Origin: a virus
Length of the DNA stretch: 64,000 nt
Virus record (IMG/VR): IMGVR_UViG_3300039191_000223
Location: 38,700-102,699 of that record
Reading direction: 5' to 3' (one strand)
The translations under genes were made by a program, and so were the position numbers. The notes beneath the pieces were generated by a model, which searched no databases, was not told the origin of the DNA, and was given only the letters and a program-made list of their open reading frames with translations. This document shows positions 5,045 to 46,722 of this stretch, piece after piece. Position 1 is the stretch's first letter; every line of letters starts with the position of its first letter.

Positions 5045-5248
5045 TCATCCGTTTTTGCCCATCATTAACCAAAAATCTTCGCCTTCTCTAAACTTAACAG
5101 CATAATCAGTCTGGACTGATTCTGCCATTGCGTAATCGTAGATAGTACCATCATTCACAAGCCCTTGTAGGATCATGAGTCCTTTTTCTACTTCCTCAAA
5201 TATAATTGCGTCTCTCACTGCGTCAAATTTTTCAGGTATTATTTTCAT
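5045..5248 (-). CDS. hypothetical protein, 67 aa
   Basis: Starts with ATGA overlap on the stop of the release-factor gene, so the two are probably translationally coupled. Acidic, no recognised domain. Confidence 0.6.
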   Translation of the reverse strand: MKIIPEKFDAVRDAIIFEEVEKGLMILQGLVNDGTIYDYAMAESVQTDYAVKFREGEDFWLMMGKNG

Positions 5249-5922
5249 AATAGATTCATTCCACCTTTCATTATTTTTGTTGCTTTCGCAGTCTTACCTG
5301 TTTGATGGTCAATTACTTGATCATCCTGAAAGCGATATGTTCTTATTTTGTCACCACGCATACCAGAGCCCCGTTGTTCCCTAGTTATTTGTGATGTTTG
5401 TTTAGACTGGTCATTATATAACATTTCGCTAATCTGTGTCAATAGACTTTGCTTGGCCTCAGCATAATTGTTTTTACGGTTCCTACCTTGACGAGCTTCA
5501 CAAAGTCCAGTGGGCGTGTGGGTGAGGCGACAAGAGTTCTGCTTTTTATTTCTATGTTGCCCACCTTTACCGGTTCCTGAAAACCACTCAACGTGGAAGT
5601 CTTTATCATCGAGGGATAGATAAGCATCGTTTACTGATAACTGATTGGGGTCAACAACGGATACTGTAACCGTAGAAGTGTGGACTCTACCACGTTTCTC
5701 AGTTGGAGGGATTCGTTGTATTCTGTGCCCACCGGCTTCATTATCAAGGCCACGTAGGTCTTTACCAGTGATGTCGAGTTGTGTAAAGCTTGGATGAACT
5801 TTAACGTCACACTTTCAACCGTAGGTAGTTGATAGGCGGGAGTATGCTTCAGCTAGATCGTTGACAAATAGTTTGGAATCGTTACCACCCTCTGCCGGGT
5901 GAATTTCTAGAATGCGTTTCAT
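5245..5922 (-). CDS. RF1-type peptide chain release factor with in-frame UGA at codon 36
   Basis: From ATG 5922 (AGAGGAAAG upstream) one frame runs to TGA 5245-5247, broken only by TGA at 5815-5817. The product has the GGQ peptidyl-hydrolysis motif (GTGKGGQHRNK, about residue 121) and AGGHRIQRIPPTEKRGR, which aligns with RF1 AGGHRVQRVPATE. PPT occupies the RF1 PxT stop-recognition tripeptide, not RF2 SPF. Domain 1 is absent, giving about 225 aa against about 360. The UGA follows TTYG and precedes KCDV, where RF1 proteins commonly have Trp (GWKVE). Translation therefore needs UGA readthrough; a pseudogene is the alternative. Confidence 0.75.
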
Positions 5923-13879: not shown

Positions 13880-13956
13880 TGGTACGTCAGGTGGGACTTG
13901 CACCCACTGCCTTCCGCTTATAAGACGGACGCTTTTACTACTTCAGCTTCTGACGC
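13880..13956 (-). tRNA. tRNA-Ile (TAT)
   Basis: Reads the rare AUA codon: loop CTTATAA in stem TCCGT/GCGGA, acceptor GCGTCAG/CTGACGT, encoded CCA. Upstream bases form an 11-bp inverted repeat with its 5' end. Confidence 0.82.
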
Positions 13957-26464: not shown

Positions 26465-26539
26465 TGGCAGGGGTGCAGGGACTCGAACCCCGATTTGCAG
26501 TTTTGGAGACTGCTGCTCTGCCAATTGAACTACACCCCT
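26465..26539 (-). tRNA. tRNA-Trp (CCA)
   Basis: Anticodon arm GCAGT CTCCAAA ACTGC, acceptor AGGGGTG/CACCCCT, encoded CCA. Confidence 0.94.
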
Positions 26540-26656: not shown

Positions 26657-26728
26657 TGGCATGCACACACGGAATCGAACCGCGCTACTGAAGTTTGGAA
26701 CCTCTGTTGCTCCCAGAGCCACACCCAT
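26657..26728 (-). tRNA. degenerate tRNA-like, Trp (CCA)-type loop
   Basis: Ends in CCA and has a T-arm, but the acceptor has a mismatch, the D-loop is only three bases and the anticodon stem around TTCCAAA is imperfect. Possibly a tRNA pseudogene next to a good tRNA-Trp. Confidence 0.5.
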
Positions 26729-40297: not shown

Positions 40298-40371
40298 TGG
40301 GGTGCCTAGATGGATTTGAACCATCGACCTCCCTCGCGCAAGGGTGCTCTGCCAGACTGAGCTATAGTCAC
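40298..40371 (-). tRNA. tRNA, probable Arg (GCG)
   Basis: Good D- and T-arms, acceptor with one mismatch, encoded CCA. The anticodon hairpin CCC-TTGCGCGA-GGG allows a 7- or 8-base loop; the 7-base reading gives GCG. Confidence 0.65.
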
Positions 40372-45330: not shown

Positions 45331-45993
45331 TTAATCGTCTCCGAGCGCAAACCCAAATAGGTGCAAGAGGCTCGTGAACAAGTTAATAATATCCAGATAC
45401 AGTGAGATGGTTGCTGAGATATAATTCGTCTCACCCCCATTTACAATGCGGCTGGTGTCGTAAAGGATGTAACCACACATCAATAGAGCTACAATAGAAG
45501 ACAATGCTAGTGACAAAGCAGGAATTGCCAAAAAGATGTTTGCAATCATTGCAACTACTGCAACAAGCAAACCTACAAATAGGAATCCGCCCATGAAGGA
45601 AAAATCCTTTTTAGTTGTCAGTACATAGCCAGACAATCCAAAGAACGCAATAGCAGTCGTACCAAACGCCAGAGTCACAATCTCTGCACCGTTTGGGAGC
45701 CCAGCATACATGGCGACCAATGGACCGGTAAAGTACCCCATCATACCAGTGAACAAGAAGGTCATTGGCAACCCAAGCCAACTATTTTTAGTGAATTGTA
45801 CGCCAAACAAGGCGGCAATTATAAAGACGAATCCCATAATACCAATCGGTCCAGCGCCCGTCATGATCGCAATGGCCCCAGTAAATGCACTGAATACCAA
45901 CGTCATTGACAATAGAGCGTAAGTGTTTCGCAAGACACTGGTCGTCTGGACATCCATTACATTTCCAATATTACTCTGAACCTGCATCGTCAT
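45331..45993 (-). CDS. BI-1/YccA-family membrane protein, 220 aa
   Basis: Seven hydrophobic segments and the closing DIINLFTSLLHLFG block typical of Bax-inhibitor-1/YccA. Bacterial YccA binds and inhibits the FtsH protease; a phage copy could protect phage proteins or tune lysis. Full length. Confidence 0.8.
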   Translation of the reverse strand: MTMQVQSNIGNVMDVQTTSVLRNTYALLSMTLVFSAFTGAIAIMTGAGPIGIMGFVFIIAALFGVQFTKNSWLGLPMTFLFTGMMGYFTGPLVAMYAGLPNGAEIVTLAFGTTAIAFFGLSGYVLTTKKDFSFMGGFLFVGLLVAVVAMIANIFLAIPALSLALSSIVALLMCGYILYDTSRIVNGGETNYISATISLYLDIINLFTSLLHLFGFALGDD

Positions 45994-46142: not shown

Positions 46143-46218
46143 TGGTGACTCGGGTGGGACTCGAACCCACAACCAGCGATATTAGAAGTCGCGGCTCTGC
46201 CCCTTGAGCTACCGAGTC
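46143..46218 (-). tRNA. amber-suppressor-type tRNA (anticodon CTA)
   Basis: Counting from a regular cloverleaf: acceptor GACTCGG/CCGAGTC, D-stem GCTC/GAGC, anticodon arm GCGAC TTCTAAT ATCGC, 5-base variable loop, T-stem GTGGG/CCCAC, A, encoded CCA. Positions 34-36 are CTA, which reads UAG. Positions 31/39 are a C-A mismatch. The alternative TCT (Arg) reading needs a badly mispaired stem. Amino-acid identity unknown. Confidence 0.75.
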
Positions 46219-46722
46219 TTATCTCCTTTTACGTTTTAGGTTTTTCTTGACCTTTGATCTTGCCAGCTTGAGTTTTACTTCACCAGCATAGCACGTAAAG
46301 ACGATTCCGTCAAGATGATCCAGTTCATGCTGATAACAGCGAGCAACCAGCCCATTCATTTCCGCCGTGATATGATTTCCGTCTAAATCGTAATATTCAG
46401 CAACAATGTATTCGGGTCGATTCAGCATTAGCTCCAGACCCGGAAATGAAAGACACCCTTCTTTGTAAGAGGATATGGTCTCGGACTTTTGCACAACAGA
46501 CGGGTTTATACATACGTATTTCTTACCTGCAATCTGCATAATGAACATTCTAACATTATCACCGATTTGAGGACAAGCCAAACCAATACCATTACTGGAT
46601 CGCATGGTCTTAAACATTTCCTCAGAAAAGTTGATAAACTCATGGTTACCGAATATTTCTTCAGGAACCGGAGTACTGACGACAGTCAGTTCATCAGCAG
46701 TTTCAGGTAGAAGTTTGATCAT
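46219..46722 (-). CDS. def: peptide deformylase, 167 aa
   Basis: GIGLACPQIG, EGCLSFPG and QHELDHLDG are motifs 1-3, with Cys and the two His of HExxH as metal ligands. Length is normal and there is a basic C-terminal tail. Removes formyl from nascent proteins; phage copies are known in marine T4-like phages. Confidence 0.93.
   Translation of the reverse strand: MIKLLPETADELTVVSTPVPEEIFGNHEFINFSEEMFKTMRSSNGIGLACPQIGDNVRMFIMQIAGKKYVCINPSVVQKSETISSYKEGCLSFPGLELMLNRPEYIVAEYYDLDGNHITAEMNGLVARCYQHELDHLDGIVFTCYAGEVKLKLARSKVKKNLKRKRR

What the first reader, a model, noticed from the sequence alone, without database searches (positions are those of the whole stretch)
46143..46218. Amber-decoding tRNA (anticodon CUA) encoded by the phage
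Position counting from a regular cloverleaf gives anticodon CTA. Suppressor tRNAs occur in phages that recode stops, and this one lies beside a deformylase gene in a phage that also carries its own RF1-type factor.
Basis: seen in the sequence. Interest (0 to 1): 0.82.

Follow-up and report, generated by a model that had tools for sequence, protein, structure and literature searches.

The report
Phage amber tRNA, UGA-interrupted release factor

Summary
A tRNA gene lies at 46143-46218 (- strand), with anticodon CUA by ARAGORN, a 57-bit Rfam match and an encoded CCA. It abuts a peptide deformylase gene. The window is part of a 102.7-kb fragment of a jumbo myovirus related to XacN1.

The recoding interpretation fails. 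Aligned against XacN1, RAS14 and a ~60%-identical relative, no conserved gene contains an in-frame UAG. UAG ends 3 of 57 homology-supported genes. Amber tRNAs without detectable targets were already published for XacN1 (PMC5852040), so the tRNA is a known kind.

The RF1-type factor is real but lies 40 kb away (5239-5922, -). Codon 36, a conserved RF1 tryptophan, is UGA with the frame unchanged. All 80 close members of the family have this UGA, against 172 UGG and 2 UGA at every other Trp codon. They form one clade (99/99). A sister class uses a prfB-like CUU-UGA +1 frameshift. An early in-frame UGA was once proposed for RF2, but a 2016 review knew of none in bacterial release-factor genes (PMC5009743). 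Readthrough, and control by host RF2, are inferred, not shown.

The parts
46143..46218 (-). tRNA gene, anticodon CUA, encoded CCA
   Evidence: ARAGORN CTA; Rfam RF00005 57 bits; identical copy in L010 and L011
46183..46185 (-). anticodon CUA (positions 34-36) in loop TTCTAAT
   Evidence: ARAGORN, anticodon at position 34 of the tRNA; direct reading of the sequence
46219..46722 (-). peptide deformylase gene, immediately upstream of the tRNA
   Evidence: Pfam PF01327 E=4.9e-41; PHROG 2890
5239..5922 (-). RF1-type class-I release factor gene, 227 codons if the two in-frame UGAs are read through; lacks RF1 domain 1
   Evidence: PF00472 and PF03462; NCBIfam prfA 1.4e-49 vs prfB 2.4e-29; best solved structures RF1
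5815..5817 (-). in-frame UGA, codon 36, at the conserved Trp of RF1 domain 2; context GGU UGA A
   Evidence: UGA in 80/80 family members; same codon in G005 and G006
5245..5247 (-). second in-frame UGA, codon 226, two codons before the UAA stop; UGG in other members
   Evidence: 78 UGG vs 2 UGA at this position, the 2 being this phage and its near-identical copy
5701..5709 (-). PPT codon-recognition motif (RF1-type PxT)
   Evidence: alignment A4, invariant
5557..5565 (-). GGQ catalytic motif
   Evidence: alignment A4, invariant
26465..26539 (-). tRNA-Trp(CCA), possible near-cognate reader of the UGA codon
   Evidence: ARAGORN; role inferred
26657..26728 (-). second tRNA-Trp(CCA)-like gene, with a mismatch in the acceptor and anticodon stems; perhaps degenerate
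   Evidence: ARAGORN; no Rfam match at the gathering score

Best explanation
The gene at 46143-46218 encodes a genuine amber-decoding tRNA of an XacN1-type jumbo myovirus that uses the standard code. SHOWN: the fold, anticodon CUA, recurrence of CUA tRNAs in relatives, and absence of in-frame UAG in the conserved genes that could be compared. INFERRED: charged by a host synthetase, it reads through some UAG stops, mainly in host mRNAs. Phage genes are little affected because few end in UAG and two of the three found have a backup stop within 6 codons. The same phage carries an RF1-type release factor whose gene keeps a UGA at codon 36. SHOWN: the UGA is invariant in 80/80 family members, the reading frame is the same on both sides, the position is a conserved Trp, and the other Trp codons are UGG. 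INFERRED: full-length factor is made only when UGA is misread as Trp by a tRNA-Trp. Because UGA is read by RF2, and the PxT motif predicts that this factor reads UAA/UAG, the UGA would act as a gate sensing RF2 activity: when RF2 is short, the phage makes its own UAA/UAG terminator. That factor would also limit the amber tRNA. The gate and the interplay are a model, not a result.
For: tRNA. Known amber tRNAs in relatives: XacN1 and RAS14 (PMC5852040), G006, six of 19 release-factor-carrying contigs by a strict pattern, all confirmed by ARAGORN. No UAG recoding: 48 aligned segments vs G005; 8,344 and 8,018 codons vs XacN1 and RAS14; UAG ends 3/57 supported genes. Release factor: family assignment; UGA 80/80; other Trp codons 172 UGG vs 2 UGA, base after UGA A in 67, G 8, C 5, U 0; third bases of neighbouring codons vary freely; one clade 99/99; flanking genes use UGA as a stop, so the genomes are not generally UGA-recoded; no ATG between UGA and GGQ in 66/80; copies in two cultured-isolate assemblies.
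Against: No expression, charging or readthrough data exist here. The record is a 102.7-kb fragment, so UAG-containing genes elsewhere in the genome are not excluded. Many early genes have no homologue in the comparison and were not tested. If the factor is strictly RF1-type, the UGA cannot give direct self-regulation, which makes the purpose of the gate uncertain. No tRNA-Trp(UCA) was found in the fragment. 17 of 80 genes lack any ATG/GTG/TTG between UGA and GGQ, but 63 have at least one GTG, TTG or ATG, so internal initiation is not excluded for all.
Confidence: 0.72

Rival explanations
1. The phage has reassigned UAG to an amino acid in some late or lysis genes (code-15-like), and the CUA tRNA is the decoder.
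For: CUA tRNAs serve this role in crAss-like phages (PMC7886860). UAG is rare as a stop here, 3/57. The record is incomplete.
Against: Portal, protease, phosphoesterase, helicase, SbcC-like and other genes align to XacN1, RAS14 and G005 without interior UAG. XacN1 authors read through 18 amber stops and found no target. The phage's own factor is RF1-type, which would terminate at UAG.
Confidence: 0.1
2. The amber tRNA is aimed at the host: readthrough of host UAG stops lengthens or disables host (including defence) proteins, while the phage is protected by rare UAG use, backup stops and its own RF1-type factor.
For: Low UAG use with backup stops in two of three cases. The same idea has been suggested for crAss-like phages (PMC7886860). 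The amber tRNA occurs without any phage target in several phages.
Against: No host is known and no host protein was examined. Host UAG stops are usually few. The phage RF1-type factor would also rescue host UAG termination.
Confidence: 0.3
3. The tRNA is a decayed or shifted tRNA-Arg(UCU) that still reads AGA, or is non-functional.
For: The string CTTCTAA and much of the sequence resemble tRNA-Arg(UCU) of phage DSS3_MAL1 (82.8% over 63 bases). The C31.A39 mismatch could be explained by a one-base shift. No other UCU tRNA was found in the record.
Against: The loop centre is CUA whether the loop is taken as 7 or 9 nt. A20, an Arg identity base from general knowledge and present in the MAL1 tRNA, is absent. 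CUA tRNAs with the same C31.A39 mismatch occur in XacN1 and RAS14. All other stems are perfect.
Confidence: 0.07
4. The UGA in the release-factor gene is explained otherwise: a pseudogene or sequencing error, genome-wide UGA=Trp coding, or selenocysteine.
For: Relatives in some huge phages do lie in apparently UGA-recoded genomes. UGA can encode selenocysteine in bacteria.
Against: 80/80 family members have UGA at one codon with an otherwise intact protein. 228 of 645 flanking ORFs end in UGA. The downstream RNA shows no shared hairpin. The position is Trp in bacterial RF1.
Confidence: 0.08

Closest known systems
CUA suppressor tRNAs of Xanthomonas phage XacN1 (PMC5852040) and Stenotrophomonas phage RAS14
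   Same: CUA anticodon, same phage group, within or near a large tRNA set, no detectable UAG targets, C31.A39 mismatch in the anticodon stem.
   Different: Loop TTCTAAT instead of CTCTAAA, different acceptor stem, single copy instead of two in XacN1, placed beside deformylase, and a release-factor gene in the same genome.
CUA suppressor tRNAs of UAG-recoded crAss-like phages (PMC7886860)
   Same: Phage-encoded CUA tRNA.
   Different: No UAG inside conserved genes here.
Bacterial prfB (RF2) autoregulatory +1 frameshift at CUU UGA (PMC12421855)
   Same: An early UGA in a class-I release-factor gene must be bypassed to make the protein.
   Different: RF1-type factor; in-frame readthrough at a Trp codon, no frameshift. 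The frameshift version occurs in a sister class of the same phage family.
Mimivirus and Megavirus class-I release factor (PMC3521657)
   Same: Virus-encoded class-I release factor whose gene needs stop-codon readthrough.
   Different: Eukaryotic/archaeal-type factor with both a readthrough and a frameshift; here a bacterial RF1-type factor of phages with one main UGA.
Bacterial prfA (RF1)
   Same: PxT and GGQ motifs, domains 2-4, fold.
   Different: No domain 1, below the curated cut-off (169 vs 400 bits), in-frame UGA; bacterial prfA is reported to lack programmed recoding (PMC12421855).

Membership tests
Amber (CUA) suppressor tRNA | tRNA cloverleaf | tested here: met
Amber (CUA) suppressor tRNA | anticodon CUA at 34-36 | tested here: met
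Amber (CUA) suppressor tRNA | charged with an amino acid and inserts it at UAG | not testable with these tools
   needs tRNA-seq or acylation and a reporter; discriminator A73 and U35 do not decide the amino acid
UAG-recoded phage (code 15 type) | UAG inside conserved genes | tested here: not met
   fragment only
UAG-recoded phage (code 15 type) | UAG no longer used as a stop | tested here: not met
   3 of 57 supported genes end in UAG
RF1 (prfA) equivalog | GGQ and PxT motifs | tested here: met
RF1 (prfA) equivalog | closer to RF1 than RF2 | tested here: met
   1.4e-49 vs 2.4e-29
RF1 (prfA) equivalog | full length with domain 1, above curated cut-off | tested here: not met
   match starts at profile position 107; 169 bits vs cut-off 400
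prfB-type UGA-controlled release factor gene | early UGA interrupting the gene, conserved | tested here: met
   80/80
prfB-type UGA-controlled release factor gene | CUU-UGA +1 frameshift site | tested here: not met
   frame unchanged across the UGA in the window and its clade; met in the sister class
prfB-type UGA-controlled release factor gene | encoded factor itself reads UGA | not testable with these tools
   PxT motif predicts UAA/UAG; no biochemistry

The most novel reading that the evidence does not exclude
A widespread family of phage RF1-type release factors is under UGA gating: one clade by in-frame UGA-to-Trp readthrough, a sister class by a prfB-like +1 frameshift. Infection thereby senses RF2 activity, or the factor itself reads UGA despite its RF1 signature, and the phage tunes termination against its own amber tRNA.
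Probability: 0.45. Interest if true: 0.85.

Novelty: new variant of a known kind. Interest (0 to 1): 0.66.

Why it matters
The amber tRNA adds one more case of a suppressor tRNA in a phage with no visible target and so sharpens that open question. The release factor matters more. Before release-factor genes were sequenced, readthrough of an early in-frame UGA was proposed as a way to regulate RF2; a 2016 review states that no bacterial RF2 gene has this arrangement and that no RF1 counterpart is known (PMC5009743). The phage family described here has the arrangement, in an RF1-type gene, in about 80 contigs. It can be tested directly with reporters, and genomes that carry it are likely mis-annotated today as a truncated or split gene.

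Tried and rejected
Shifted Arg(UCU) loop: rejected on loop symmetry and missing A20. Genome-wide UAG or UGA recoding: rejected by stop-through comparison with G005, G006, XacN1 and RAS14 and by UGA use as a stop in flanks. Selenocysteine: no shared hairpin after the UGA; a consensus fold on ungapped windows gave nothing, though indels further downstream weaken that test. A cognate tRNA-Trp(UCA): none found. ARAGORN missed a tRNA at 13883-13956, which reads as Ile(UAU), not UCA. Dependence of the amber tRNA on the release factor: rejected, XacN1 and RAS14 lack the factor. An enrichment test of amber tRNAs in phages with versus without the factor was not done; the 6/19 figure is a lower bound without a background rate.

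Full report
OBSERVATION. ARAGORN reports 40 tRNA genes in the window, all on the minus strand; the last is at 46143-46218 with anticodon CTA ('Pyl' is only the program's name for that anticodon). Rfam agrees at 57 bits. Acceptor, D and T stems are complete, CCA is encoded, and the anticodon stem has four pairs plus a C31.A39 mismatch. Random sequence of the same dinucleotide make-up gave no tRNA in 20 x 64 kb. The tRNA is identical in two further contigs. It directly abuts a deformylase gene.

CONTEXT. The window is bases 38700-102699 of a 102,699-base IMG/VR record. The portal protein is closest to Xanthomonas phage XacN1 (53%) and Stenotrophomonas phages CM1 and RAS14 (48%), all jumbo phages. 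The tRNA-rich stretch (about 0.1-41 kb of the window) recalls the tRNA-rich terminal repeats of XacN1 (PMC5852040). No tRNA was found in the 38.7 kb before the window.

WHAT THE tRNA IS. XacN1 has two CUA tRNAs and RAS14 one, G006, another relative in IMG/VR, has two, and Aeromonas Shenzhenvirus phages have one. The XacN1 authors tested read-through of amber stops (N = 18) and found no target. Several of these tRNAs share an unpaired 31-39 or 27-43 position. The window tRNA resembles tRNA-Arg(UCU) of phage DSS3_MAL1 over the shared string CTTCTAA and may descend from such a tRNA by a one-base shift; this is inference. It lacks the A20 typical of Arg tRNAs. The amino acid cannot be assigned from sequence; Lys would be a weak guess.

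IS UAG RECODED? I translated all frames with UAG and UGA read through and compared them with relatives. Against G005 (IMG/VR contig, about 60% identical, colinear with the first 44 kb), 48 segments were kept; the only gene with stops facing each other inside a homologous protein was the release factor, and those stops were UGA. Other marked stops lie at alignment ends or in overlapping frames, by my inspection. Against XacN1 and RAS14, 8,344 and 8,018 codons were aligned without UAG inside a gene. Among 57 homology-supported genes, UAA ends 36, UGA 18 and UAG 3; in two of the three UAG cases another stop follows within 6 codons. The phage is therefore not UAG-recoded in the parts that could be tested. 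Suppressor tRNAs without recoding have been noted in crAss-like phages too (PMC7886860).

THE RELEASE FACTOR. Pfam RF-1 and PCRF domains map to 5239-5922 (-), about 40 kb from the tRNA. The protein has GGQ and PPT motifs, lacks domain 1, and fits RF1 better than RF2 by profile, by solved sequences and by predicted structure (pLDDT 88, best matches ribosome-bound RF1). Codon 36 is UGA, followed in the same frame by the rest of the protein. The position is Trp in the bacterial RF1 sequences looked at.

CONSERVATION OF THE UGA. A profile search of IMG/VR returned 423 candidate stretches, 367 relatives, 80 kept. Of these I analysed 79 plus the window gene; L045, a near-identical copy of the window gene, was left out. 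All 80 have UGA at this codon. At all other Trp codons there are 172 UGG and 2 UGA; the base after the UGA is A in 67, G in 8, C in 5 and never U; the codon before is Gly in 79. Third bases of other invariant residues vary freely, and median pairwise identity is 63%. Flanking ORFs end in UGA in 228 of 645 cases, so these genomes use UGA as a stop. In 66 of 80 there is no ATG between the UGA and GGQ. In the window the first in-frame start codon after the UGA that opens an ORF of 60 codons or more (a TTG at 5442) lies beyond GGQ, so re-initiation is unlikely to make a working factor here. No shared RNA hairpin follows the UGA.

A SECOND CLASS. An independent DNA pattern for PPTEKRGR, which does not depend on the UGA, found 69 genes: 24 have a prfB-like CUU-UGA +1 frameshift site, mostly with a CGGAGG-like element before it; 22 have one in-frame UGA; 6 more have two in-frame stops (3 with two UGA, 3 with a UGA and a UAG) and 1 has a single UAG; 5 are uninterrupted; 11 are unclear. 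Two of the 22 (L133, L178) and L193 group with, or duplicate, rows of the apparently UGA-recoded phages. In a tree of 82 factors, the 39 in-frame-UGA rows form one clade (99/99), separate from the frameshift class. The frameshift class also occurs in Myxococcota chromosomes, and the in-frame-UGA class in assemblies of Thalassospira and Rhodovibrio.

LITERATURE. Bacterial prfA is reported to lack programmed recoding (PMC12421855). Atkins and colleagues (2016) state that an early in-frame UGA with the frame unchanged was once proposed for RF2, that no bacterial RF2 gene has it, and that the RF1 counterpart is unknown, with a giant virus of amoeba as the exception (PMC5009743; PMC3521657). Phages with UGA=Trp coding do encode RF1 (PMC10746230), but those genomes are recoded. 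I found no paper on the phage family described here; bioRxiv and most subscription journals are not in the library.

MECHANISM. Shown: the UGA and its conservation. Inferred: readthrough by tRNA-Trp(CCA), of which the window has one good gene and one doubtful one. UGA followed by A is, from general knowledge, a leaky context for this. Because RF2 competes at UGA and the factor itself is predicted to read UAA/UAG, the simplest model is a gate that opens when RF2 is short. If the factor reads UGA after all, it would be self-regulation as in prfB. The amber tRNA and the factor are separable, though they co-occur in G000, G006 and at least 6 of 19 further contigs. Whether this is more than chance was not tested.

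VERDICT. The tRNA alone is a new member of a known kind, of modest interest (about 0.3). The release-factor arrangement raises the overall interest.

Noticed in passing
L130-L209 (24 loci), L224, L225, L228, L234, L240: RF1-type factors with a prfB-like CUU-UGA +1 frameshift site at the place where the window clade has its in-frame UGA; also on Myxococcota chromosomes (Minicystis, Nannocystis).
   Followed up: partly
L027 (LR745208.1 62874-64710): Huge-phage release-factor gene with GGAGGGGTCTTTGACC, a classic frameshift signal.
   Followed up: partly
L018 17134-17208 (RAS14): ARAGORN finds a tRNA with anticodon TTA (ochre), not annotated as such in the record.
   Followed up: no
L005 594-667 (Aeromonas phage AhP_Mru1): tRNA with anticodon TCA (UGA reading) in a phage that also has a CUA tRNA.
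   Followed up: no
window 46143-46218, L017 25352-25510, L018 13233-13308, L129: Phage CUA tRNAs often have an unpaired 31-39 (C.A) and/or 27-43 position, giving a shortened anticodon stem.
   Followed up: partly
window 13883-13956: tRNA with loop CTTATAA (Ile UAU) found by Rfam (58 bits) but missed by ARAGORN.
   Followed up: partly
window 40298-40371: tRNA-like gene for which ARAGORN gives a two-base anticodon (cg), i.e. a 6-base loop; possibly degenerate.
   Followed up: no
window 45331-45993: Bax1-I (BI-1-like) membrane protein gene (Pfam 9.6e-51) next to the tRNA; unusual in a phage.
   Followed up: no
L221 (Hahella MAG): Release-factor relative at 58% identity with UGG at the Trp position but stops shortly after; possibly another recoding site or an assembly error.
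   Followed up: no
L033, L038, L128, L129: tmRNA genes in these jumbo phages, alongside amber tRNAs in G006 (L038/L039), L128 and L129.
   Followed up: no
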